This document shows positions 26,371 to 53,514 of a DNA stretch of 64,000 nt, piece after piece. The notes below the pieces were generated by a model, which was given only the letters and a program-made list of their open reading frames with translations, searched no databases and was not told where the DNA came from. The stretch lies in NCBI RefSeq assembly GCF_003073045.1, contig NC_037593.1:11912735-11976734 (forward strand), written 5' to 3'. Origin of the DNA: Pomacea canaliculata. Its lineage: Eukaryota > Mollusca > Gastropoda > Architaenioglossa > Ampullariidae. How positions within the stretch are numbered: the stretch's first letter is position 1; each line of letters opens with the position of its first letter. The position numbers were made by a program, and so were the translations under genes.

Positions 26371-27427
26371 CTGAGGAGAATTTATTTTTCTATATTATTT
26401 TAGATTTGATCAGGAATGGTTCTTATCATCAATACAGCAAAATCTGTCAAATTTTAAACTCAGAAGTGAGACACTCCCACTACTCAAATGGTTAACCTTA
26501 ACTACTTTTAGTACCTTTTAAAAAGACTAAACTTCTCCCCTATTTCTGTGCATTTAATTTACCTTCCCCTCCAACAGTGTTGCTTCGCGTTCCCTTCTTT
26601 GTCTTTCAAAACAGATCTCTATTACATCACTGGGAAAAGCAGCCACTCTCATAATTTTTCTTTTGTCACAACAGAGCAGCAATTGTGAGATGTTGAACAG
26701 TAAAAACAACAAAATGGAGAATATATGCACTGTTGCACACGCTGGAAGTGAACAGATAAATGATTGAAAAACTACACAGGATAAAGTAAGGGCACACAGT
26801 TTGCCCTGCTGCCTAACTGTCCAAAAGGGGTAGGGGAAAAGGGGGCAAAAAAATAATAGAACAAGAATAATGAATAGATTTATAAAACAGCAAAGAGATA
26901 AATTGTCAACTTTAACAAATTATTTTTGAAGGAAAATTATAAGGGATAAACATTGCACAGTCTTAATTTTACTTTTTTTAAATTTTTGTTTAAAAATCAA
27001 TCCTTAGGATGCATGGATGAGAGGAAAATGACAATGGGATCTGCAATATGACTTTGATATAAATGCCACTGAAAAGATGAGAAAAATATGAAATAAATTC
27101 TTTAGTGTCAAGTACAAATGTATTCTCACACTAAAGAACTTATTATGTAACCAGTCACCAAGAACACTTCATAAATCTTGTCCATTCAATTCTCATAAAT
27201 GTTTTTAACTATAAGACTTAAAATGTAATGTCTAGTTTTTGCATTTTGTCTTTTCCTACCATCTCTCTTACCACCCTGAACCCATGCATCAAAAACAAAG
27301 CTGTAATGTCAACCACAATCGGAGGCTACTCCACAGCTGTCACTGTTCTATGCTTTAGAAAGTGACAATCTATCTGAAGCTGTAATAACAGAGTAGCCTT
27401 TCATCCACAATCTTCAGGATAATCTGT

Positions 27428-30400
27428 TTAGCACACTTGGCCAAAGTGAGGTCCCTCTGTGATGATAATGTCCCCAAAGGGCTCTGTCTGCTGTACACAT
27501 GCAGCCTGATGTTTCTTTAAGACCAGCAAGGTGTAGAAACGAGAAGCCACTTGCTTGCGGTTAAGGTTTCGTGTCAAGTCCTTGAAAGAAAGGTTCCTGG
27601 AGTAGTTGAATGCAGATCTCAGAACATGCTGCATATGTTGTGTGCGCTTGTTGAGGCGCTTCTCATCCTGCTCCTCATTCTCTGGCATGGCTTCCAGGTC
27701 TTCAAGATCTTCAAATGCCTGCAATCAAATGAAATACAGCATTAGACAAAAGACTACACTAATAATAAGAAAAAGTTGCAAATAAACTTAAAAATAACAT
27801 GCTGATGTTAAAGTCACTTATGAAAATTTTTGCATCAAATTAAAATTCAATCATTATTTATCAAAAGCTTATACATTCAGATGTACGGATATGCATATTA
27901 TATTATAATATATCTCTCGTTCTCTCACCGTGATATAGCCTTAGTTGCCGGTATGGCTTAAAACTCAAATAACCAACCGCCCCCCACTCCCCACTGTTCT
28001 CCATGGGATTTAGGTATGTCTGAATATGCCAGCAAATGGGATCAAAACAGACCTTTCTAATAGAAAGACTGTCATGTAAAAAAAGCCGGTGTTTGTTTTT
28101 GTTGGCATTTTTTTCAGTCTGAAGTAGCTCCCAATTGCCCACTTTGAATGGATACTTTAGAAAATCAAGTATCTTCTGCTCCCTTTATGCAGAACTGAGA
28201 TATAAATACGGTAAAATACTAAGTGATAGACAACATGTACTTCTTTATATCTAAATGGTGTGTGTGTGTGTGAGACAGAGAGGTTGGCATGTGACTGGTA
28301 GTCATGTACATTTGCTTATAAAATCTCTCTCTCTCACACACAATGCAGCTTACTTCACAAAAGTAGGTAACCCATTCACAATTCACAAATTGGCAGACAG
28401 CACAAACACATGCTCGCAGACTTCTTGTGTCTGTGTTATACCAGGTTATCATTATCCCTTTTCTCTTGGCAAGTATATCTCTTGGCTTCACCTCTTCACC
28501 CAATTGCCTAATCTACTCACTCTTAAGTCTCATGGATTTCTACCTAATTCTTGCTATCTACCAAAGATTTATTTTTTAATACAAATATAACTACTCACAG
28601 GTGGAACAGATGCTGGGGCCACAGATGGGGGAGCATTGGACGGTGGTGGAACGGAGAACGGTGCCACAGAGGGAGGACCCTCCTCCAGGTTTGGATCTAT
28701 CGATGGCTCTATTGTTGTGGGATCGGCTGGCATGTCAACAATGACATCAGGGATCTGTGCAAACAGGTCGTGATGTGAAACTACAGGTTCGGGTTCAAGA
28801 TGAGGCACAGGTTCAGGTGCCGTTGAATGTCGTGGAGACTTTGCGGGGAAAGATTTATCTGCAAAGGATCTCTCACTTCTGCGGGTACGGGTGGTGCTTG
28901 TGGTTGTCGTTTCAACCACACTGGATGGTTCTTCAATTATTGTACTCATCTCTGAATGACGGGTCTGGTCTGCTGAAAAGATGACAGAAACAAGCTAACA
29001 GATAAAAAAATTTGATGAAAGTATTTAATTTTCAAGCTACTCTTAAAGTGGTTGTAACAGCAACACAATCCTACTCTGCTCTGTTCATAATATAAATTGA
29101 GCATCGAAGCAAATCCACACTAGAATCTTTTAAGGTAAGCATATAATAATTAGCACATTTATGTGCAGTTGGCATGGACTCCATTGCATAGAATCTTCCA
29201 TAAAAATTTGCTTCAAAAAGTAGCAAAGAAGTTTTTATGGTATTTGTATGGAAGCGCAAATCACAGTTCCTGGAAATGCAGCCCAGCCTTCACAGACAGA
29301 AGCATTGTTCCATCACACAATTGCTGTTCAGCAAATGGTCATTGCAAGATCAGCTTCCCAGAGAAGCACAATGTCAGCCATATCAGAAACTAGTCATCTA
29401 TTTACATTTCTATAAAGAGAGATGGTCTGTGCTTCTCCATACAAAAATTTGAAAGGAATGCATTATTTAGTAGTTTTATTGTCAATCGAATAACACAAGA
29501 AAATGCCATCTTGCAAAGTATATAATTAACAAATGCATCATATCAATCTACTGAAGACAATTATTTTACATCATCTAACAAGCGTCTTCCAAATTTTAAT
29601 TTTGCCCCATCTCTCCCCTTTATTTAAGGATTGTTTGATCTAAAAATATATTAACATTCTAGATTTTACTGTACTTATTTCACTTGTAGTAAACTTATAT
29701 TATCTATAGTTGATAGCCAGGACTCATTTATCACCTTGAGCATTTGGCACAGCTATTTGGTAGACAATATTTACAATATGACTATTTTAAAGTACCTGTT
29801 TTCTCCTCTTCTCGTGTGATCTCTGGAAGTGGTGCAGACAAATCTAACTGGTGTTCCTCACCAAGCTCAAGGTCATCAAGCACAGGCTTAGTAACTAGGT
29901 TCTTGGTGAACAGCTGTTAAGAAATACAATATATATAATCCACTTGACAGAGGTTCAGATGCATGTCACTCTATACCTCTATACCATTCAAGTCATGATT
30001 TTCTATAAAGATTTTGTTTGCTTCAAAACAAAACAAAAAAAATGGAATAAAACCATTCACCACAATGTAGTTTTGTATTGTCAGTAGTTCTAGAAGAGCC
30101 TCAAATTATAGCTTAAAAACTAAAACACAAATTCTACTTAAAGCAATGTATTAAAAGAAATCTAACCCAGGTTGTTGATTTGGAGACTATGGGTCTGCCT
30201 GACAAAGCAAACAGCTTTTCCACACCACCAGTTTCCTTCCAATGCATTAGTTTCTTTGTGGGTGGAGCAAGATCTAAGGTGGTGACAATGTCTGTGGTGT
30301 CAGACAGCTGAAGCTTCATCGTTTCACTTGGAATACCCTTCTGCTCATCAACAATAAGTTTACGCTTTCGCTTGCCTTTTTTCTCTATACCACCTGAAAA

Positions 30401-33400
30401 GCAACAGAATGAATTTCGTAGAAGTAATTGTTTAATTGCCTTTCACATTTTATTTTCTTTCTTAAGGACAAACAGAGCAAAGCCAAAAGGTAAGTTAACA
30501 ATAGCCATTTTTTAAAAAATACAAAAGCTTTAATTTTTTTGTAGGTGTATGCAAAAAAAAAAAATTGCTTAATGGTCAATTCCAAGTAAGAACTCACACA
30601 GGTCTGACCACATTTAAAAATAAGGACCTTTTAAAAGGACCGTACACACACTGCAAGTTTATAATAACCAAAACACCACCAAAGAGTATACTGAACAGTC
30701 TAGATGTATGACCATCCTGTCTATAATCAAAGCAACTGTAATAACTGTAACCTGGAACAGCCGTGACGTCTAATGGCTCAAGTGCAAAAGCTTCTTCTTC
30801 GTTATGTACCAAAGTGGTCTGCTCAGCAGAAATGCTAGAGGCACTGGCTGCTGCCTGAAGAGGTACTGTCTCCTCAGCATCAGCTGCTCCTCCAGATGAT
30901 CCTTTTGCATGCTCTGTAACAATACAGGTTGCGATAACAAGTTCCAATACTGCGGGTCATTACAACAAGTTGTAACAGCTACTTATCAAAATTTTACATA
31001 GCTCTTTCCCCCACTTTGGTTAATACAAGTAATTTTTATACGTTAAGCATACCATCAGATTTTCCCACTGCTGGACCTTCCTCTCCGTTATCATGGGATA
31101 TTGGTACCTCTGGCATTGGTGTATCTTCAAACAATCCACCTGTCTCCATGAAATCTTGCCCTGTAATTGATGCCCACATCAAGAACCATGCATTAACATG
31201 ACTGTAGGACAAATCATATTGTGGTAGACCAAAAATGTATTAAAATGTAAAATCTTACAGCACCATCCTGCTTCATAATCATGTATATATGCACATTATA
31301 AACTCACGAGCATACCGAAAATTGTTCAAGACATGGGGCCATCTGTGGCAAATATGGGTACTCTGGTAAATAACTAATAAAAATGTTATAAAATGATAAA
31401 AAGCTATTTTTTTTTTTTAGAAAACCTTTGTAATTGTAATTTGCATTCTAAACAACCAGCATTAAACTAAAAAAATAATTTAACTCAAAGACTTTGTCCG
31501 AAAAAAAAAATCTTACCAAAGAAATCTTGATCAACATCTCCAAAATTTCCATCACTGTCATCACCATCATCATCAGCCCCACCACCTAATTCAAACAAAA
31601 ATTACTGAAAGCTTTTGTTATACGTAAACAGCAGCAACCAGAAATGTCAGATCAAACATAAGAATCCTCTTTATGATATATGAGATATTTTCATCAGTGT
31701 CCACTGATTCTTTGCGTAAGGTGTGAAGCCACTGGTATTAATATGCATATTTAATAATTTTTAAAACACTCACTTTAAAGCTTATAAATAACAACACACT
31801 ATAAAACTGATGAAAATACTTGCAGCAAAGTCTTACCAATAAAGCCACCAACACCATCTTCATAACCATCTCCCTCTACAGGAGGTTCAAGATTGATGTT
31901 CATGGACTTTTCAGTGCGCGAGTCATTTGTTAGGGTTTTGTCGCGATCATCCATATGAACAGCACTGGTCACTTCAGGATTCTTGTAGAGAGGATCCTCA
32001 AGATGGGAGGTATCTCGCAATATTTCTCGTTCATCAAACCCTACATCTCCTGTTGTAGTGTATATTTAGATATCAGTTAACAACAATTAGCTGGAAAGTA
32101 AAGGGTAAGTCACTAACAATTGCAAAATAATGCATAAACACTTAAAACTGATTGTTTTAATGACTCTTTTATAATGAAAAAAAAGAAAGAAAATGATCGT
32201 ATGTCTTGTTGGCTCCCTTGAAAAGACCAAAATGATTAAATCAAACTAAATGAGTAACAGTGACAGACGGTACCCACCCAACATACTGCATGTCATCAGA
32301 ATGGGGATTCCATAAATTTGATAGAGCAATTACCTGCTACAACTATAGCAAGCGTTACTTACACTTGCTCTTTTGAGTGTGCCACCCTCTGAAACGCCAA
32401 GCTGTCCTTGGTAACAGTTTTTGTGTGCTACCATACTTTTAAAACTTGTTTGATTTTGACTGGTAAAAAAAAGTGCTGGTCCCTATTTAAGCCTGTCCTT
32501 CGTAAAATGGGAGAAGAGGCCCTTTTACCAGATCAAGTTATGAGACTCACTTCCATAGCACGTACATACACACACACAAAAAAAGGTCAGAAAAATGGTG
32601 TATGTGACCTTAATACTACTTGAGCCCTTAGTCTACCCACTTTTAAGCTTCTAGCTATTTAGGAAAGAGGTAGAGAGAAAAAGGATGAAAGATTGAGAGA
32701 AGTGAGAGCCCAAAACAAGCATTCTTGATGCCTAACACTTATCACGACAGAGCATACCAGAACACCTGCACCCCTAGAAGTTTATATAGCATCTTAACAT
32801 CCTTAGATAATACTATTTTTTAAAGTCTTGTACTTGGTTATTTTAAACAACTCCAGCCTAATGGCACCGAAAAAAAAAAAAAAAAAATCCCAATTGGAGT
32901 CAGGCATAATTACAGACAGGGAAGGGGTAAGGGTGAATAGTGGGCATTGGAAATTAGTTCTTTTGTAGCTCCACAAACAATTACAAATCCATTACATGAA
33001 ACATCCATAAACAACAAGTCATTGTTTCACTAGCACACCAGCAGGTAGAAGTCAACTTGGGGTCAAAGTCTTAAGAACAAGTGTGGTGTGTTTGCAAGAA
33101 TGGTGGCAAAAAGATTCTCCTAACCCTTTTCCACCAAAAGATAACCGGTGCATGTCTTTTTCTATGCCTGCCGGACTCCAATTGGAATCTTGCTGGAGAT
33201 GGACTGGTTCGAAGTCTTAAAAACGAGGATGGAATAAAAGGTAAGCTTTGACCCCAATCTAGCTGACTTCTTACCCTTTGGGTTGCCAGTGCCAGTCGGC
33301 GGACAAAAGTCAAGGTCACTTGTCTCATCATTGGAACCCATGTCCTCAGAGATCCCTGACTCAGCATCAAAGTCGTTGTAACCTGGATCACTACCAAGGC

Positions 33401-36400
33401 CAAGACTGCTGTCCAGACTGCTGACAATGGCCTTGTGTGGCTCAATGGTCTCTGGTTGCCACTTATAACTCTCAGCTCGTGATTTGCAGATTGTGGACGG
33501 CGGGCTTGCTGCGAATAATCTACGTGCTGCTTGACATGTCTGAGACTTCATACTACTACTACTTCTTTCAAAAGAAACATCTCGAGATAAAAACGAATCA
33601 GGGCTGCGAAATGCATCTGTGGAATGGCAAACATTCAAGCCATCTCTATGTCCTAGTGCAATAGTGGAAGTTGGACTTGCATCCATTTCACAGTTCGAAC
33701 AACAACTGCAGTCTTTGTCTGAAGAGACTGAATGTAGTCTTTGAAAATCACTGCCATAACCAGAGCTGGCCGCAGACATAGCACTAGTTCTTCTTAACAA
33801 CACTGCATTGCTTAATGGGTCATCTGTGCTCCATCTTTTTGAGACAGGAGAAATGACCATTAACCCAGCTTTTATAGTTTGCTCAGTGAGATAACTGGAA
33901 GGTTCATGCTCGTTAATGGATGGTGAGGCCGGTGACTGTCCAACACCCAACACACTGCAACTAGGTCTGCTGGTAATAGGTGAAATCCCTGAGGTATGTA
34001 CTGAAGAACTTGGAGGTATTTTGTTACTATTGATATTTAAGTTCGGTGAGCTGCCATTTGCTGCTGTAAAATGCCATTTGCTTCTTGTTTTATCATTTAC
34101 TGAAGCACAACATAAACAAGTCCTTTTGGCTTTAAATGGTATGTCTGTTAATGGAGAACCGAGTTTATCACAAAAAGGGGATGGGGACCTTGTATAATTC
34201 TCAGCACTGTCACATCGTATATTTTTATGGTGGGGATGTACAATATGGGATTGGTTACATATGACTGGAGATTCTGTGGGCTTATGGCTAATAACAATGT
34301 TTATCCATGACCCCTGGCAACTGCACCTGTTCTGGAGAGTGCTTTCAACAGTGTCTAATATTTGGGCAAAATCTAATGGGTGGCTTATGAAGTCAGTTTT
34401 GAACCCATGGATTATAAGTGTGAACTCTTCATCGTTGACTTCACCACCTAAGCTGTCCTCTTCTTCCAGATTATCTGTATACAATGACAAGACAGCAGCA
34501 ATGCATATCAGACATAAGAGTACCGCACATCTTTCACTGCACTGAACAGGTACTAGTCTGACTTAAGCAATGCAATAAAATTGCATCATGAAGCCAGCAA
34601 GGAAGACACTCACCAAATCCATCATCTCCCATAAGAGGGATGGAACCTAGGTCTTCTCGCATTGTAATCTCCTCAGGACGACTTTGGTTGACAGAAAACT
34701 GAGCTTGAACATCAATGTCCCTGTTTTGTTGTTGTTTTTTTTGGGGGGGAGGTAAAAAAAATAAAATTAGCACAACAAAATAATTTGCAATTTACTATTT
34801 CCCACCTAAGCCCAACATTTCCAAAATACAACTGGGCTTTTTAGTCATTTCAAAATCCAAATCCAGATGTTTAACTCTTTCTTTTTTGAATTTCCCATTC
34901 TGTCCTTTTTCGCAGGTCAGTTCCCTCCCATTCCCAAACTTTACAAATAATAATTTTTAAAAAAGAAAGAAGCATTGACATTCCCCCTTAGATCTGAAGC
35001 TAACCAATTTAACCTATTTATGGTTTGTCATTTACCAAATGCAGAATAAAACACTTAGAAAAACATCTTAGAAAATGAAAAAAATCTTCAACATAAACAA
35101 TAAACTCCTTATTTTCTAATTCACTTATGATTACAGTCAGATCATTTTCATATACAAAATACACCACTGCTCGAGGTGCATGAACACATAAACTTACTCA
35201 AGGTCTGCAAGAGCAGTCTCAAAATCATGAAAGTTTTCCTGAAGAGTGATGGCAGCAACTGCAGCTTCTCGGTTTTCTTCTGGTAGATCAACCACACCTG
35301 GCCGAAAAGCCATTTTTATTTTTACAAAGGCCTCATTGCAATCTGCTAGCAAGTATTTTGCTTTGCGTGAGTAGATTCTCACAACACCAAGCATAAGATG
35401 ACCTGAAGTGCGAAGTGCCATCTTCACCTGCAACATAGGTCAATACCAATGAGCATAACACCACAACAATATATATACAGCATCTTTTCACAGCACTAAA
35501 GCCAGGTTCAAATTGTTCTATATACAACATACAAACAACACTCATGAAGGTATTAAGAGCACACCTTTTTAAAGAAGGTATCAAAAACATCTAACAGCTG
35601 TTATATTTTGTATTGTCATAGGTCATGTTTACTGATCTGTGCGCTGAAGATGAAAAAAAAAAAGTATCCTCCAGCAATCTCTGTTTTTGTCAGTCAAAAA
35701 ATAGTATCCTACAAAAATTGCAATCAGTGTGCTAATTATATAGATCAGGACTGGCAAAATATGGCCAGTAAAATATAGAAAGTTCACACGTTTAATCCGC
35801 ATATTTTTTTTATAAAAAGGGATCAGGAAAAAAAAACCAGTTGTAAAGAAATAAATCCATCAAGAAAAAGCTTTAGATACAATAATCAAACAAAAGGCTA
35901 CAGAGACAGTGAACAGCAGAAATACAAGTAGAAATGAAGAGCCCACCAAACTGAAAGACATGAACACTGCTTATAAGATTTTAACTTCTTACAGCTGCTT
36001 ACCATACAATCATAGGTTTTAGAATTCTTACCTGGATAATTGAGGGAAAATATGCCGTTCCATTTGACATATTTTATTTATTGACTATAAGCCCTGGGGG
36101 CATCTTTAGCCATAAAATCAAACAGCAACAATCACACAATAACCATCTCTTATGTGCAACAATGTGAAAATATTAGATGAATGCATGATACTAAAAAATA
36201 TAGAGATTACTTAAACAGTGATATTGAAATCTGAATAAATTTGCTCAAGTAAATAAGTTTACTTTTGGGTTTGATAATCATCAGAAATTCCTCTGGATGA
36301 TGCACAAAATATACCAGAAGCAGCTCTTTCCATTAAATAGTAAACAAAAGGTGAGCACACAAAAACATATAATGAAATTTATCACCTACCTCATTTAGAT

Positions 36401-37512
36401 TACACGACAGACATGTTCTTAAATGTCTAAGTATATCAATATATCTTAACTGATGAATAGGGAATATATGGCAACTTAATCTAAATTTTATTAAATTTAT
36501 TAAGTAATTCCCCAAGCCAAAATAATCTTTAAACATACTGTATTTCATTTTTTTACCATTTCTTTCTTCCTGTAAATTATGAATGTGTCACGCCCTTAAC
36601 ACAGCTGTCAAGATTTCAAGTGGCATTTATTTTAGTTTAAAAGATAAAAATGTTTCTAATATGTTAATTCAACATCTTTCAGCCTTGCTTGATTTCTCAA
36701 ATTTTGAGTTTATGGATACTTTTCATCTGGGTTTATTTCAGAACACGTTCCCAAAGTTAACCTATAATCATAAACCAATGATCTTGTTTGAAGGAATTAG
36801 TTTAGTTTTTCTGCTACTCCTCAAGGACCGTAGGGCCTTGTTTGAATGAATTAAAAGCAAATGTAGTTGCAAGATGTATCAGACTGGAAAGGTTCCGCCA
36901 TCGCTTATTATCTTTCTTTGACCCAAGTATCATTACCTACTGGCCAATGTATCTTGTAAAGAGCAATAAACTCACATCCATGTGGGGGAACTGCACTATT
37001 AACATCCCATTATTATTATTATCTCTGTTATCATCATCTGTTATAAAATATGGCAGACTTGCAAAATCAAGAAAAAGAATATGCTGGAAAACAAAACCTT
37101 GCAACATGAAAGTAGCATATTTCTGCTTATATAAAGAAGAGAGCCTTGCTTATTAGTTGTTGCTTTTTATATATTTATATACACTTCATATCATACAAGT
37201 GATATAAAGGAAAACCTTTTGACTGTCTCCACACACACTAAAAAGGCAAAAATTAATGAAACTTGAATCAGTCATAATTGTTTCTTCACAACACTCTTCC
37301 CGTAACCCACTCTGTTATTTTGCATCAACACCAAGTCACCTTAAGTCATAAAGATGCTCTCTGATTACCTTTGGCTTCAATATAGCTTCCACACTGCTGT
37401 CTATGTTGGTCTCAAAGACATGAGCCTTGGTCAATTTCTTGTCCCAATGTGCAGCCAGCCATATCCGGGCCAGGGGCCCTCTTTTACTAAGCACAAAGTG
37501 TGCATAAAACAT
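27428..37512 (-). CDS. RAD21: RAD21 cohesin subunit (kleisin), 680 aa or 1080 aa with cassette exon
   Basis: Bridges SMC1 and SMC3 in the cohesin ring and is cut by separase at anaphase. Coding exons, 5' to 3' on the minus strand: 37369-37512, 35198-35427, 34614-34720, cassette 33275-34474, 31837-32049, 31517-31585, 31053-31160, 30752-30913, 30167-30393, 29796-29913, 28599-28972, 27428-27718. Without the cassette the frame gives 680 aa (human 631). The N-terminal SMC3-binding domain starts [20 protein letters not shown]; next come [20 protein letters not shown], the [10 protein letters not shown] separase site, the SA/STAG-binding region ([20 protein letters not shown], then [11 protein letters not shown]), a Pro/Glu-rich linker, and the C-terminal winged helix ([16 protein letters not shown], ending in GPHFGQVC) that binds SMC1. 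Start ATG lies 26 nt inside exon 2; exon 1 is non-coding. Confidence 0.95.
27925..27992 (+). mobile_element. tRNA-derived SINE, copy 4 (3' fragment)
   Basis: In the last intron of RAD21. GTGATATAGCCTTAGTTGCC followed by GGTATGGCTTAAAA and a C-rich end match the 3' body of the SINE at 22301 and 55064; the head is absent. Confidence 0.55.
33275..34474 (-). CDS. RAD21: RAD21 400-codon cassette exon
   Basis: An uninterrupted 1200-nt exon between RAD21 exons 3 and 5, with acceptor TGTATACAG and donor AAGG/GTAAGAA. It enters and leaves in phase 1, so it can be included or skipped without changing the frame. Exon 3 also joins directly to exon 5 to recreate the conserved [15 protein letters not shown], the equivalent of human RAD21 around the first separase site; this shows that inclusion is optional or derived. 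The insert is Ser-rich and probably disordered. It has about eleven Ser-Pro pairs, three Cys clusters ([24 protein letters not shown]) and an acidic end ([15 protein letters not shown]). I recognise no domain. No ATG lies at its 5' end, so it is not an independent gene. Confidence 0.75.
36796..36840 (+). repeat. Palindromic dispersed repeat, copy 2
   Basis: ATTAGTTTAGTTT followed by CTGCTACTCCTCAAGGACCG and TAGGGCC, a diverged match to 2736-2787. Lies in RAD21 intron 2. Confidence 0.4.
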
Positions 37513-38246
37513 TTTGCCAGGAAGCTTTGTCAACCTTTCTGAAAAAGGAAAAAGTACAACTCTATATTACTAATAATATATTATAAAAATACATTTTGTG
37601 GCTCCTGGCCACCTGCAGAATGCTGAGGAAAATGATACTAAAGTTATTTTCTGATTAAAAAAAAAACAATAAAAAACTCTAGCAGAAAAGAAATGCCCTA
37701 AACCTTCAGTCTGAAGTTGAATGGAAAACCCAATATTAGAGGCTGATCCAATTTCTTTTCTACAAGGGGCACACTGCTTATGACCTGTTTACACTATTCA
37801 CTTAGTGTTGATGTGATATGGTTTTCATCATGTTTCAAAACAAGTGCTTCTTGCATCTATTTCCACTTAGTGACTGTCCTATTTTTTTTTTTTACTCTTG
37901 TTGCTTTAGCCTTTTCAAACTTTTATTTGTGCAGGTTTAGTGTTAGCAAGTGAAATGCAGTGTGCCAAAACAGCATGTACTCTAACACATACTCTCACAT
38001 TATAATTTCCTTTTATATAAAGTAAAAAAATACAACTTGCATGGCAAAGGCATTTATCCAACTAAATAAGCTTAACCAATGTAAATACTGCTGGTGCACA
38101 TTTTGAAATCTGCTATTGCTGAATTTTATCTTATCTGTATTCATATTTTAAGTATCAACATTTTATTTTCTTATTTCCCTTTTTTTGGCGACAGTATGAA
38201 CACACATTATTACATAAATACCCTATTTAATAATAAAAAATAAAAG

Positions 38247-46700: not shown

Positions 46701-49700
46701 TTTCCTTTTTTTTTAAGACGCCTAGAATGGAATATGAGTGTGCAAAATTTCAAGCTTTCTGAAGAGAAAAAGATCGTGGCAGAGATAGACAGTCTGCGTC
46801 GTTCCAAGAAGACCCTTGCGTAAGCATTAAGCAGGCTGTACACTTACAGAATTTTACGTGACTGGGTTTTTGGCAAACTTTCTCATCTACAAACATTTCA
46901 TTTAGCTATTGGAAATCAGAGTTCAAGGTCACTTGATTTCATCTACATCATTTGTGATCAGTTGCTTCCCAAAATCAAAACCGGTGTTTTGTCTTACTAA
47001 CATTGGTTTGATACTTCCTGGACCAGGCAAGTGGGGGGAGGGGGGATTCTGCTTTTTTTTTTCAATCTTTTCATCAGTCCATCCCTTGATAAGTTTATGC
47101 AACTTTCGCACTGTTTCTTTCTTTCCCAAACGTGAAAAAAAGAATACTTAGTGCATTGCTTTTCATTGTTGTCTATGTCAGTGCCCTTTTGTCTGCATTT
47201 ACTTGTCATCCTTGACTGCTTCATCCATAAGTTATTGTGAGTTGTGTGGGTTTTTTGGTTGATGCTATTGCTTTTGAGAAGGTTACATTAGTGTGATAGC
47301 ACCATTGTATCGCGGTTTACAATCTGTTTTAAATAACAAAAAATAATAAATAACAAATCATTTTGTGCTCTCAGATGTGGCTTATTATTATCATCTTTTT
47401 TTTTTTTCTATCACCATGTAGACTTTACCTGAGTCTTAAAAAGGAAATGGAGCGAATGAGAGACCAGCAACGCTTTATGCGTGAAGAGAGAGATGTAAGT
47501 TTTCAGGCTTTGATAGTGTGCTCAAGATTTTCATCTGTTAAAATCCTGTTTACTTTCTGTGCTCTTTTACTCCATTTTTTGTATCAGAAAGATGTTGAAA
47601 TTTATAGTAAGATTGTTCCAAGGCACTGGCAGTCAACAAGGCTGAGGAGCCATTGATATATTCTAGGGCTTGACCTATTTTTATATCAGCAATGAATGTT
47701 TGAGCCAGTAGTTTTACACTGTGCTTTATGATTATCCTACTCCATGTCCCAGGTTAACTTAAAAAATGAACTCATGTCCTCATGTACATGTGAACAAATT
47801 ATAGCTTCTGATCAAACCCAGCCTACTGTTTCTTTTAAAAATAACACCAACAGCATTTTGACACAGGATTATTTTTGTTATTTGGTTCCCTCTTTGGGTT
47901 TTCTGTATTGGATGTTATTCTTCGTTTAGTACGGTTGTTTATTCTTTTATAGCTCATATGTCATTTGTTTGTTTTCCTGTCCCTTGTATGCTGTCCATGT
48001 TTTGTTCTTAAGCACTAAAAGTATGCTCCTTAGGAGTGTGAGTATGCACTTTACAAATTTTACATTTATAATTATTATGTTACATGGTTTCAAAAAGATG
48101 AGCACAAACCTGCTTAAGAAGTCAGTTTGTGTGCCCTTTGCCCCTAGTATTTGTGAACTGTATCAGAGAAAGACAGCTTTTTGTTACTTGAGTAAAGTTG
48201 CCACTTCTGTATGTTGTAGCACTGCTTTCACAATGTGACACAACTGAAACAGCAAGAAGAAAAAGTCCGCAGTGATGCTGTCAAAAAGAAGGCTCAAACA
48301 GAGAAGCTGAAGAAAGGTAATGGGAACATTTCCTGCATTGCTTTTTCCTGTTGTCTTTGCCCTCATGGCTTTACTTTTACTTGTTATCCTTGGTTTTTTC
48401 ATACATGTTAATCTATAAGTTAGGGATTCGTGTGTAATTATGTTGGTGCTGCTGCTTTGTCTATCTCACTACTAATTTTCATGTTCCTTCTTTAGAAACT
48501 AGTTTTATACACACTGTACTAAAAACAACACTTTACATTTGTCAGAGGTGGACGGTCTGTATGAGGCCAAGCGACAGATGATAGCCACATACAAAAAGCA
48601 GAGGGAGGAGTTCAATGACATGCGAGAAAAGCAGCGGCACGAGAGCTTCAAGAAGCGGGAAGAAGAAAAACGAGCCATTCAGGCAAGACTCAAGAAAGAG
48701 CTGTGAGTGATGAACTTTGTTAGAATTCTTACCTTGACCCTTGTATTAGTTGCCTGGTTAATAGCTGATGTTTTCAGATTTCCTTGACAGTTTGTAAAAT
48801 GCAACTTGTCATTTGCCAGTTGTGGCAGCTTGTCTTTCCAGGTGTGATAAAGGTTACATCTAAAACGAACAACAACAGATTGTAGTCCTTGACATTTCGC
48901 AATTTTAGTGATTTAATAAAAGTTGGTTCCATTATGCTATCTCATATTTATAGCTGTTCTGTGTTTATGTACAATTGTGACCTTTTGCATGTATTTGTAT
49001 CTGTTTTTCTTGTGAAGAAAAGTCCTTAAATGCAAATTTAAAAAACCTGGATCTGTAAAGAAGAGGAAAAACAAATCTTAGGGGCGCTACTCTGTGGCTT
49101 GACACCAGCTCACTTTCATCTTGTGTATGCTTGTAAGTGAGAAGCGGGCCATGAACTACACAGCATGGGTACAGAATAGTACTCCCCATCATGAGATACT
49201 GACAGTGTCCCTCAGGTCACACTATTTACCTTATGAATTTGGTCAAATCACTGTGATACTAACCTATATTCCCAGCCCAGACTTCAACCTCGCAGCTGAG
49301 CACATAGTGAACACATTCAATTGAGCGGTGACTAGATCAGTAGACCAGCCAATATTTTTGCTTGGGGACTTAAACCACTATCCTACAACACTTGGACACC
49401 TCTGGCACCTGTGTTCCGGTCCTGTTCATGGGTTTTTCTAGTGCCTTAAACACAGTCCAGCCACACTTCATAAAGCCCCTGCTAGACCTGGATGTCAACA
49501 CCAGCCTAGTTCTGTAGATATGGTCATTCCTGAAGGACCGACCACCAAGGATGGGTCTCAGAGTTCCACCAACAGGTACTGTAGGGTCTGGCTCATCTGA
49601 AAGGGTAAATCTGTCAATGGTTGGAATGATTTTGTCAGACGAGCAGATCCTCAACACATATACATCTTCAGGGATGTGTGCTTTCCCCTATCCTGTTTTC

Positions 49701-52700
49701 TGTATATACAAATGAGATTTCCATTAACAATGCTATTCTCAAACTTTTAAAGTATGTAGGTGACATGGCCCTGGTGGCCTGCCTCAAAGACGAACAGTCC
49801 CCTGTCACAGTACCTGGCCTGTTGGGGTGGGGGGGGATGGAAGACTGGTTTTACCACAGCTTTCGGGAGCTGAATGTTGAGAAAACTGAGGAGATGGCCT
49901 TCGGCCAAGCATTCAATGGAAGAGATCGCAGTACCCCTCTCTCCCCACCAATCCAAATCAAAGGACAGCAGGTACAGAGGGCTGCCAGTTTTAAGTACCT
50001 CAGTACAGTGATGGAAGGCTTTCTGTTAGTGATCACATGAACCAAGTGTACAAAAATGCCCAGCAAAGACTGTGCCTTTTGAGGAAACTCTGCAGTTTTA
50101 ATGTCAGCTCTGGGGTTCAGACTGTTTGCTGGTTCCTTGTTGAAAGCATTCTCACATTTAATATCGCTGCCTGGTATGGTCATATCCTTGTCAAAGACAA
50201 AGCAAGGCTGACCAAAGTTATCCACCACACAAATAGAATTATTGGTACAACACAGCTGCCACTTTCTGACTTGTACCTTCATGCAGTTAGAAAGATGGCA
50301 TACAATATCACATCATACCGAACACACCCTCTCCATCCCATATTTCATCTGTTGCCCTCAGGCAGGTGCTACAAAGTGCCACGTGCATGAAAAACTGCCT
50401 ATCAGAGGTCCTTCATGCCAGCAGCCGTCACTACTCTAAATAAGAGGTACAAATACTCATAAGGGTGCTCTATTACCTGGCATCCTCCTTGGGAGGTTCA
50501 CATGTATAGGTGTAGGTATGCGTGTGTTTTGAATGTCTTGTATGGGATTTGTGTCTGCCCATTATGTTATGTGTGTGTATATATATAGATATGTGCTCAT
50601 GTTATGTTTGTGTATGTGGTTTGGGTTTGTAAGCAAAAGAAAAATTTCTGTCTTGGACTTCCTTGGACAGACAATAAAATTTAATTTGATTTGTTAATGC
50701 TTCTCAGAGATGATCTAGAGGCCCAGAAGCGACCATATGAGGATGAGATTTGTCTCTGCAACACCTTGATACACTACCTGAATCGTTTTGTTGCCAACAC
50801 TGATGTTGAAACTGTCAGCCCTACAGGGTTTGCATCTACACCAGTTTCTTCTCCTGCCACGGAAGAACCAGCCCCACTGAATAACCAAGGTTTGTCGTTT
50901 GCTTTCGACCTCTTCAGTGTGATATTCACATTTCATGGCTGTTTACCTGTCATTTGCTAAGGAGACAAGGAAAGAAATTTTGTGTTAATGGACACTAAAA
51001 AGAAACTTAGTTTTATTATTTCTACGGAAAAAAGATTGTTAATCTTTTTGTCTTATTCTCCAAGCCAGAAAGAATTATAGGTTTTATGTGGCTATAAAAA
51101 GGATTAATGAATGAAATATAGAATAATCAGAGATAATAAAACAACATGGATAATATATTAATTACCATCCAACAAGTTCATGGCAATATTATAAGATTTT
51201 AGCGTGTATGTGTGTGTAAATCCACTTGTATTCTAACATGTGTCTTGTTTTTGACATGCTCGGCACAGCATCTGGGCTTGCAGAAGAGCTGGAAGATGGC
51301 CAGTATGTTCTCCTGAGAAAATGTGAAGACAGCAGCTATGTTTCCTGCTCTGCCAAACACTTAGCTCGCAAACAGCGCCGAAGCCGAAAGGCATCCATGG
51401 TCAGTTACGCCAGTTATATATAAAACAGCCTTATTTTTTGTGACCTTCCTCATCTTTCATCCACTTTATTAAGTTCTTGAGCTTGTTCTATGATTTTCTC
51501 TGCGCACAGTCACTTTAAAGTTAATAACATTGCATTGACCTTGTACCGCTCATGATGTCCCCTTCATGAAATGTAAATTAAAACAAAGACATTTTTGTTT
51601 AAAAAAAATGTAATATGTTCACATGGAGAATGATGTAGTTTAGCCATTAAATTTGTGTGTGTGATGTATGTCAGAATGACAGAAGAAACTATTTTGCAGG
51701 TGAAGCGAATCACTCATACACCAGAAGTACTATCCCAATTTTTAGCTCTCAATCTTAACGCACCTACGACTATGGCCGAGGTGCTTGCTTCTCTGGAGCA
51801 GCTGCGGGCAAGAAGGGTAATGCTTTATTGCAACGTTATTTGTCTTTTTCTTATTTTACATATCATCGGCCTTTCCCTTAGCTGTGTTAGTATCCATATA
51901 CAACGATTAGTGTTCCTTGATTAGTACTATGCCTTGGTAGATATGCTGTAGCCTGATTCTTTTAGCTTCAGCCTTCTAGAGTTTTATTATGGTTGATTAC
52001 CTGCTGGTCCTTTGCCCTGTACAAAAGGAGGAGTGTGTGCCAAGGGCTCATCTTGATAGATCTAGATGATTCTGTCATTGAATGCCTCAGTTGTTATTTC
52101 AGAGGAGGTAACAGTGCCATTTTTCTCACTGGCCTGTCCTTATCAGTTGTTCCAGGATTGATTATTGGTCCACTAATCATTTCACAGCTAACCTCTTTAT
52201 CTGAAGATTGTTCACCTGGAACTTGGTTGGGGAGGGTCACCTCACTGCCTGTGTGAATGTAATCTGCTCACAGAGTATCCAGATTTACAAAACTCCAATT
52301 TATTACTGCATAACACTTGTTCTTCAGCCTGATATAAGCAGTGTGCATTACACTCCACAAACCATCCCTATTCTCTCACCACTTTAGCATGGTTAATTGC
52401 AACCTGTTTTGTGCTCCAAAATGATATATTGCAATATGATAAAGATTTTATATTTCTTTGCTTGCCAAGAAACCAGAAATAAAAACAAGATAAAATGTTT
52501 GTTTAAAAAAAAAATTCAGGAAGTTTGTGCATTGATTTGTAAGTGCTGTTTTACTTGCTGCAGCTGCATTATGAAAGGGAGGCAGAGGCAAAAAGTGAAA
52601 CAGAGAGTGCGGTGTATGAGATGTCAAGGCAGGCCAGCCACACAGAGAGCTGCGACGGACAGTCAGAGGCACAGCTCAGTGACCAGGTGATGGAGGAACT

Positions 52701-53514
52701 GCTGCAGGTTAATGGTTGCTGGCAATCTGCAGAAAATGTTTGCTCACTGAAGCAAGAAGAGGCATCCAGTTCTGGCTGGGTCAATAACCATGCAGAACCA
52801 GACATTTTAAAAAATTGCTCCTCTACTAGAGAAGAAGGAGTTACCTTAGACAAGTGTTCTTTCCCATCTCTGCTGGAAACGGTTGCAGATTCTTTCAAAA
52901 GCAGCAGAGGACCACTTTTTAAACGGCCTGCCAGCATGTTTTTAGGGGAAGAAATGGATAGTTTTAATGGTGTTACGGATGTTGTGCATCGGCATCTTGC
53001 AGGATCTCCAGATTGTGTTGCTACCAGTTTTTCAAAGGCAGCTTGGGATAGCACACCACAGGGTATTCTGTTGGATCATAGAATATCTACTGTTCCTGTT
53101 GTTAATGGGGTCAGCAAATGCGATGATGTGATAGAACTCGGGAATGGCTGCCCTACTGTCCAATGGCAGGAAGTTGCTCAAGACATAAGTGACAAGGGAT
53201 CAGCCTGTCATGAGGAAGATGCAGTGATTCTGACAGGAAATGACTCAAACAGTGGTGGAATAAACAGATCCCAAATGGGATTTTGTAACAACAGCGAGAC
53301 ATACTGTAACATCCCCATTGCTACTGTCAGCCATCCTTCTGATTTCAATGATATCCTGATTGATGGAGCTGAAGTTGCATCTGAACTTGGCAAAGAGTCC
53401 GAAATTTGTGTAGCCTTAAACAGCTTGCATCTCAAAGGTGACGGTATGGTTCGAAAAGAGGCAAACTTCACAGACAGGGGCAATAAAAACAAGGATGGGG
53501 GAATTTTAATTTAG
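40783..53514 (+). CDS. BFR1-family coiled-coil protein (714 aa, 12 exons)
   Basis: Exons: 40783-40828, 44288-44386, 44779-44897, 45363-45433, 46718-46819, 47422-47494, 48220-48316, 48546-48702, 50708-50889, 51269-51399, 51700-51816, 52564-53514. Phases agree across all junctions; the stop is TAG at 53512. After an acidic start (MDEVQDDEEDEKE), residues about 17-260 are long charged coiled coil, including RLEWNMSVQNFKLSEEKKIV, a pattern shared by fungal Bfr1 and plant proton-pump-interactor proteins. A basic patch (ARKQRRSRKAS) and the block VLSQFLALNLNAPTTMAEVL then match the C-terminal BFR1 region. The 316-residue last exon is acidic, Ser-rich and not conserved as far as I can tell. Yeast Bfr1 associates with polysomes and mRNPs at the ER; a similar role is inference. 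Introns carry a hAT-like element and a Rex1-like LINE. Confidence 0.8.
45794..46556 (+). mobile_element. 763-bp non-autonomous hAT-like transposon
   Basis: Perfect 13-bp terminal inverted repeats, CAGGGTTCCCAGG and CCTGGGAACCCTG, flanked by the direct repeat AGAGA (45789-45793 and 46557-46561). Both ends carry several copies of AGGTCCTTTTAAGTCCTTTT-like words, typical of subterminal transposase-binding repeats. No transposase ORF. It lies in the intron between exons 4 and 5 of the BFR1-like gene. Confidence 0.85.
47929..48062 (-). repeat. 140-bp dispersed repeat, copy 2 (inverted)
   Basis: The reverse complement matches 38247-38386 over nearly the full length, including ACATGGACAGCATACAAGGG and the CTCCTAAGGAG palindrome. 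In an intron of the BFR1-like gene. Confidence 0.75.
49085..50690 (+). mobile_element. Rex1-like (Jockey-superfamily) LINE remnant
   Basis: In sense orientation within the intron between exons 8 and 9 of the BFR1-like gene. About 49140-49380 encodes part of an endonuclease domain (GQITVILTYIPSPDFNLAAE; FLLGDLNHYPTT). About 49410-50400 encodes reverse transcriptase and C-terminal parts (MLSPILFSVYTNE; KNAQQRLCLLRKLCSFNV; HPLHPIFHLLPSGRCYKV). The segment that should link them is missing, stops interrupt the frame, and the catalytic motif is altered (YVGD where YADD is usual). The 3' end is near GGACAGACAATAAAATTTAA. Confidence 0.8.

What the first reader, a model, noticed from the sequence alone, without database searches (positions are those of the whole stretch)
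33275..34474. RAD21 carries a 1200-nt, frame-neutral cassette exon encoding 400 extra residues
Seen directly: a 400-codon open stretch on the RAD21 strand, bounded by good splice sites, phase 1 at both ends, exactly 1200 nt. The flanking exons join cleanly without it and rebuild the conserved segment before the first separase site. Established knowledge: human RAD21 (631 aa) has no such insert. Inference: a lineage-specific isoform of a core cohesin subunit, with a Ser-Pro-rich, Cys-clustered disordered insert placed next to the separase site, where it could affect cleavage, phosphorylation or partner binding. A 400-codon stretch without a stop is unlikely by chance in DNA this AT-rich.
Basis: partly seen in the sequence, partly recalled or inferred. 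Interest (0 to 1): 0.78.

Follow-up and report, generated by a model that had tools for sequence, protein, structure and literature searches.

The report
Large optional-looking exon in snail RAD21
In the golden apple snail, the gene for the cohesin ring protein RAD21 contains a real-looking 1200-base extra exon that would add 400 probably disordered, phosphorylation-prone amino acids just ahead of the site where the ring is cut at cell division; whether it is used, and when, needs RNA data.

Summary
The window lies in the Pomacea canaliculata genome (two contig lengths equal the published scaffold N50 and N90). On the minus strand, 34474-33275 is a 1200-nt stretch, phase 1 at both ends, between two RAD21 exons. 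The gene reads open without it (680 aa) and with it (1080 aa). Without it the protein aligns to human RAD21 with no gap across the junction. The stretch is coding, not chance: 0 stops in 399 codons where about 22 are expected, a period-3 signal above all 1308 (overlapping) non-RAD21 stretches tested in the window, good splice sites. It is single copy, and no homologue was found in the libraries searched, which hold no other mollusc. The product looks disordered: Ser-rich, 12 SP sites in 401 residues against 2 SP/TP in the other 680, clustered Cys. It ends 11 residues before the separase Arg, so the recognition elements known from human separase (P7-P1 and downstream docking) stay intact. I favour a regulated, phosphorylatable tether between the SMC3-binding domain and the cleavage region, not a change of the cleavage motif. 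That the exon is skipped at times (cassette) is inference: no transcript data were available, and constitutive inclusion is the main rival.

The parts
33275..34474 (-). the 1200-nt exon (INS), phase 1 to phase 1, residues 161-561 of the 1080-aa form counting both split codons
34475..34613 (-). 139-nt intron upstream; acceptor GTCATTGTATACAG|ATAATC
32050..33274 (-). 1225-nt intron downstream; donor CAAAGG|GTAAGA; no AATAAA found between 34720 and 31837
34614..34720 (-). RAD21 exon E3, ends ...DDGF+G (phase 1)
31837..32049 (-). RAD21 exon E4, begins (G)[11 protein letters not shown]: separase site 1, Arg 172 (skip form) or 572 (inclusion form)
27428..37512 (-). RAD21 coding region, 11 conserved exons plus INS: 37512-37369, 35427-35198, 34720-34614, INS, 32049-31837, 31585-31517, 31160-31053, 30913-30752, 30393-30167, 29913-29796, 28972-28599, 27718-27428
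   Evidence: Pfam Rad21_Rec8_N E 5.7e-42 and Rad21_Rec8 E 3.2e-15
33162..33274 (-). 37 further open codons after the donor, then stop: tail of a possible alternative terminal exon
32884..33257 (.). intron stretch with imperfect inverted repeats (32884-32906/33169-33191 and 33057-33068/33246-33257); single copy in the genome, no role found

Best explanation
It is a genuine, large internal coding exon of the RAD21 (SCC1, alpha-kleisin) gene of Pomacea canaliculata, most likely used as an alternative exon. Shown by sequence: the exon is coding, fits the frame of its neighbours, and its absence gives the ordinary RAD21. Inferred: when included, it places about 400 mostly disordered residues between the SMC3-binding N-terminal part and the first separase site, giving a longer, more phosphorylatable kleisin tether. 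The separase recognition elements stay intact, so the long form should still be cut by separase. Its 12 Ser-Pro sites, with one RRLF cyclin-docking-like motif, suggest that a cyclin-dependent or other proline-directed kinase changes its charge and partners, tuning cohesin loading, release or partner binding in the cells that include it. The confidence given is for 'alternative exon of RAD21'; for the phospho-tether mechanism as well I would give about 0.25.
For: Both forms open (680 and 1080 aa). Ungapped human alignment across the skip junction. Stop-free and period-3 far beyond non-coding stretches. Composition differs from what the exon's own bases would give: D+E z +3.9, Ser z +3.9, hydrophobic z -3.9, SP/TP z +4.0, net charge z -3.5, 2000 simulations. 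Protein character changes at both predicted splice sites: 60% FILMVWYC in the 30 residues before the acceptor, 35% with 28% acidic in the first 40 after it; 22% acidic in the last 49 before the donor, 0% in the 37 after it. CpG observed/expected 0.34, like the other RAD21 exons (0.35), introns 0.26. No Met codon in about the first half of the frame, so it needs an upstream exon. SP/TP 12 of 401 residues against 2 in 680. Recalled motif patterns: RxLF once (shuffle P 0.028), CC/CxC five times (P 0.006), uncorrected over 21 patterns.
Against: No transcript or peptide evidence. No relative of the insert in Pfam, PDB, PHROGs, viral or prokaryotic contigs or elsewhere in the genome, so conservation cannot be shown. 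Its period-3 signal, though above all non-RAD21 stretches, is below every equally long window of the rest of RAD21 (51.8 against a minimum of 86.7), and the first third is weak (12.4 on 6 df). GC by codon position (0.436/0.509/0.358) is unlike the rest of RAD21 (0.611/0.405/0.394). Synonymous third-position GC (0.344) lies between introns (0.308) and RAD21 (0.376) and does not discriminate. Cys (4.3%) resembles open intronic frames (5.0%). No full CDK consensus [ST]Px[KR] (0 found).
Confidence: 0.55

Rival explanations
1. The exon is real but constitutive: apple-snail RAD21 always carries the 400-residue insertion, and the 680-aa form is only the ancestral one.
For: Good splice sites on both sides, donor third of 11 with each site left out in turn; no sign of regulated splicing was found, though apart from donor pairing none was sought; the protein outside the exon also differs in length from human, 680 against 631.
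Against: The flanking exons still join into a conserved human-like segment, although this would also be true of a recent constitutive gain; the acceptor is the lowest of the 11 under a model trained on the other ten (6.9 against 8.4-16.4), a comparison biased against it, and fifth of 11 when each is left out in turn.
Confidence: 0.3
2. Alternative last exon: E3 splices to it, and the frame runs 37 codons past the donor to a stop, giving a truncated N-terminal kleisin with a new tail, without STAG- and SMC1-binding parts.
For: The frame stays open to 33162.
Against: No AATAAA between 34720 and 31837; of three variants also sought, only ATTAAA at 32161 and TATAAA at 32786 and 32173 lie downstream of the exon; strong donor in frame with E4; the 37 codons have no acidic residue and look unlike the insert.
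Confidence: 0.07
3. Not an exon of RAD21: a chance open frame, transposon remnant, or part of a nested gene in the intron.
For: No transcript evidence; no conservation shown; no homologue found; period-3 weaker than in the rest of RAD21.
Against: A chance frame of this length is not expected even once in the genome; single copy by DNA and protein, so no sign of a repeat family (the DNA search skips very common words); no Met in the first half; splice sites and phases fit RAD21.
Confidence: 0.08

Closest known systems
RAD21/SCC1 (mitotic alpha-kleisin of cohesin), human form
   Same: Same domains and the same order; skip form aligns over residues 1-676 to human 1-628, E 3.7e-149; separase site 1 Arg also at residue 172.
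   Different: Human protein has no insert at residue 161; the snail gene carries a 1200-nt exon there.
Big tau exon 4A (MAPT)
   Same: Works like: a single exon of about 1 kb (1065 bp), found in peripheral-nerve and retinal transcripts (passage in PMC9735940), inserts a long stretch.
   Different: Tau is a microtubule protein, not homologous; the alternative use is demonstrated there and only inferred here.
Ankyrin-G giant exon (ANK3 exon 37)
   Same: Works like: very large alternative exon, included in neurons to give a 480-kDa isoform (passage in the preprint PMC12713133).
   Different: Not homologous; function tested there, not here.

Membership tests
RAD21/SCC1 alpha-kleisin | N-terminal SMC3-binding domain (Rad21_Rec8_N) | tested here: met
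   Pfam E 5.7e-42, residues 1-103
RAD21/SCC1 alpha-kleisin | C-terminal SMC1-binding winged helix (Rad21_Rec8) | tested here: met
   Pfam E 3.2e-15, residues 626-676
RAD21/SCC1 alpha-kleisin | separase ExxR sites at the positions of human R172 and R427 | tested here: met
   EILR ending at 172 and EITR ending at 454, aligned to human; cleavage itself not tested
RAD21/SCC1 alpha-kleisin | mitotic kleisin rather than REC8 | tested here: met
   aligns end to end with human RAD21; none of the 17 PDB matches is named REC8. No direct comparison with a REC8 was made; another Rad21_Rec8_N match of the genome is on C5
frame-neutral cassette exon | length a multiple of 3, same phase at both ends, both forms open | tested here: met
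   1200 nt, phase 1/1, 680 and 1080 aa
frame-neutral cassette exon | functional splice sites | tested here: inconclusive
   sequence scores only: donor quantile 0.990, acceptor 0.976; use not shown
frame-neutral cassette exon | both inclusion and skip transcripts exist | not testable with these tools
   no RNA-seq or cDNA available
large disordered alternative exon (big tau, ankyrin giant exon) | long, disordered, non-domain protein segment | tested here: inconclusive
   AlphaFold2 without alignment pLDDT 31.8, 0 of 399 residues at 70 or more; no Pfam family; low confidence from a single sequence is weak evidence of disorder
transposon-derived exon | multiple related copies in the genome | tested here: not met
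   only the locus itself found by protein and by DNA; the DNA search skips very common words

The most novel reading that the evidence does not exclude
Apple snails make a second, cell-type-specific form of mitotic RAD21, nearly 60% longer, whose kleisin carries a built-in module, controlled by proline-directed kinases, between the SMC3-bound end and the separase site. Cohesin of some cells (for example germ line or neurons) would thus be tuned by splicing of the kleisin itself, not by swapping kleisin paralogues.
Probability: 0.25. Interest if true: 0.72.

Novelty: new variant of a known kind. Interest (0 to 1): 0.42.

Why it matters
RAD21 is among the most conserved chromosome proteins, and known diversity of cohesin comes mainly from swapping paralogues (RAD21, RAD21L, REC8, STAG1-3; recalled). 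A 400-residue optional module spliced into the kleisin beside the separase site would be a different route to cohesin diversity, and a natural test of how tether length and phosphorylation upstream of the cut affect the ring. Five searches of open-licence PMC papers bore on whether this is in print: three returned no paper, one returned 3 and one 133, of which 15 were listed. No listed title or abstract start mentions such an exon; I opened none of those papers for it.

Tried and rejected
Homology of the insert: Pfam at E up to 10 on the whole frame and on two parts (0 families), PDB (1 and 7 matches, best E 1.8 and 0.49, unrelated proteins, taken as chance), PHROGs (0), viral contigs (1 pattern match, 0 confirmed), prokaryotic genomes (15 pattern matches, 0 confirmed), own genome (itself only). 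Duplication of another RAD21 part: best E 0.78, rejected.

Donor hidden in a hairpin: I saw a possible pairing of the donor with CTTACC downstream, but its pairing probability (0.55 with 60-nt flanks) is ordinary; 62.9% of 599 GT sites reach it. Mobile element in the downstream intron from the inverted repeats: single copy, not supported.

Codon preference: my first test used kinase exons in which minus-strand loci had not been turned (12 of 22 dropped), so I discard its likelihoods. Of the 30 kinase loci fetched I used the 22 without stops inside. The redone script (22 of 22) gave position composition only. Kinase exons vary so much in GC3 (0.349-0.879) that they are a poor yardstick for this AT-rich gene. 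Third-position composition is therefore inconclusive.

A strand-helix-strand-strand pattern appears in both models of the insert's first 77 residues, but pLDDT is 37.5 for the 120-residue piece, so no fold search was run. Bacterial promoter/terminator scan: counts below the shuffled means and not relevant to an animal gene. Tandem repeats at 27000-38000: none.
Full report
WHERE IT IS. The window lies at G000:C4:11912735-11976734 of a 440,159,624-base genome in 24 contigs. Contigs C6 (31,531,291) and C12 (23,662,357) have exactly the scaffold N50 and N90 lengths published for Pomacea canaliculata, the golden apple snail (passages of PMC6129957), although the paper's total, 440,071,717, differs slightly. 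I take the species as identified.

THE GENE. On the minus strand RAD21 has 11 conserved coding exons from 37512 to 27428. Without the exon in question the reading gives 680 aa with Rad21_Rec8_N (E 5.7e-42) and Rad21_Rec8 (E 3.2e-15), and matches human RAD21 over its whole length (E 3.7e-149). The alignment has no gap over the E3-E4 junction: snail [18 protein letters not shown] against human QENDFGDFGMDDREIMRE. Site-1 Arg is residue 172 in both (snail; human number from PMC12609080).

THE EXON. Positions 34474-33275 are 1200 nt, phase 1 on both sides, so that inclusion gives 1080 aa, also open. The intron before it is 139 nt, the one after it 1225 nt; the skip intron would be 2564 nt. With a small weight matrix from the ten other introns, the donor (AGG|GTAAGA) scores above 99.0% of 599 GT, the acceptor above 97.6% of 666 AG in the gene. 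Under that model the acceptor is the lowest of the 11, a comparison biased against the site left out; with each site left out in turn it is fifth, and the donor third.

IS IT CODING? Very probably, on four counts. (1) The open frame around it is 466 codons, the longest in the window. In 2 x 2000 simulations none passed 271 codons, and a stop rate of 0.0563 gives P = 9e-11 for 400 open codons. (2) Period-3 base usage: chi-square 51.8, and 0 of 1308 overlapping non-RAD21 stretches reach it. The 12 highest of these (37.9-47.3) lie at 52.4-52.9 kb, around a 323-codon frame that I take for an exon of a neighbour gene. (3) Amino-acid make-up departs from what the exon's bases give at random: more acidic, more Ser, fewer hydrophobic residues, more SP (z 3.9-4.0 in size), while Pro (z 1.0) and Cys (z 0.8) do not. 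(4) The protein character changes at the two predicted splice sites.

WHAT SPEAKS AGAINST. The period-3 value is below every equally long window of the rest of RAD21 (minimum 86.7, mean 127.4), and by thirds of the exon it is 12.4, 26.7 and 23.0, so the first third is the least certain. GC by codon position, 0.436/0.509/0.358, is unlike the rest of RAD21, 0.611/0.405/0.394; Ser-, Thr-, Pro- and Cys-rich sequence would give such a pattern (inference). Synonymous third positions do not help, and Cys content (4.3%) is close to that of open intronic frames (5.0%).

WHAT IT ENCODES. Ser 17%, 17 Cys (several as CSC, CLCC, CSCC), 12 SP in 401 residues, against 2 SP/TP in the other 680. One RRLF a few residues before an SP resembles a cyclin-docking site (pattern recalled). 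Two [DSE]SGxx[SDE] matches resemble phosphodegrons (recalled). The five patterns that stand out (SP/TP, RxLF, the phosphodegron-like one, CxxC, CC/CxC; shuffle P 0.006-0.028) are uncorrected for 21 patterns tried, and none of the SP sites fits the full [ST]Px[KR] pattern. AlphaFold2 without alignment gives pLDDT 31.8 and 37.5 for the first 120 residues: no fold can be claimed. No relative was found in the libraries searched, but these hold no other mollusc genome that I could search, so orphan status is not shown.

HOW IT WOULD WORK. The last insert residue is 561 and the site-1 Arg is 572. In the passages I read, human separase contacts run from P7 (D166) to R172 and then to sites downstream: S175, S185, S189, L191/E194 and NHLEYE; unphosphorylated site 1 also needs LPE 255-257 (PMC12609080, PMC6858450). 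All of these lie C-terminal to the insert. So the insert should not break site recognition. What it changes is the distance between the SMC3-bound N-terminal domain and the cut site, and it adds phosphorylatable, partly acidic sequence (11 D/E, 1 K/R in its last 50 residues). It adds no new ExxR. My preferred mechanism, a phospho-regulated tether, is inference.

CASSETTE OR CONSTITUTIVE? Frame neutrality and a conserved skip product make alternative use plausible, but would also be seen after a recent constitutive gain. I give cassette 0.55, constitutive 0.30, alternative last exon 0.07, not an exon 0.08.

NOVELTY. Large alternative exons are known (MAPT exon 4A, passage; ANK3 giant exon, passage). 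For RAD21 I saw none reported in the listings of five searches of open-licence papers (one search listed 15 of 133). It is a new variant of a known kind, of moderate interest until RNA data show use.

Noticed in passing
RAD21 exons 29913-29796 and 28972-28599 (-): The snail keeps ExxR (EITR, residue 454) at the place of human R427 but has no Arg at the formerly proposed second separase site (IIEEPSS against human IIEEPSR). This fits the 2025 reassignment of site 2 from R450 to R427 (PMC12609080).
   Followed up: partly
52543-53514 (+): A 323-codon open frame with strong period-3 signal and no Pfam match: probably a large exon of a neighbouring plus-strand gene.
   Followed up: partly
49630-50040 (+): Reverse-transcriptase-like fragment (RT_1, E 1.2e-4, under the curated cut-off), probably an old LINE-like remnant.
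   Followed up: no
L004 (G000:C5:29971078-29971191): A Rad21_Rec8_N match elsewhere in the genome (27.9 bits), probably REC8 or RAD21L.
   Followed up: no
32884-33257: Interleaved imperfect inverted repeats in the intron just after the exon's donor (23 nt at 87%, 12 nt at 100%), single copy.
   Followed up: partly
34427-34242 (-), residues 16-77 of the modelled insert: More hydrophobic stretch with a low-confidence strand-helix-strand-strand pattern in both models; might be a small domain.
   Followed up: partly
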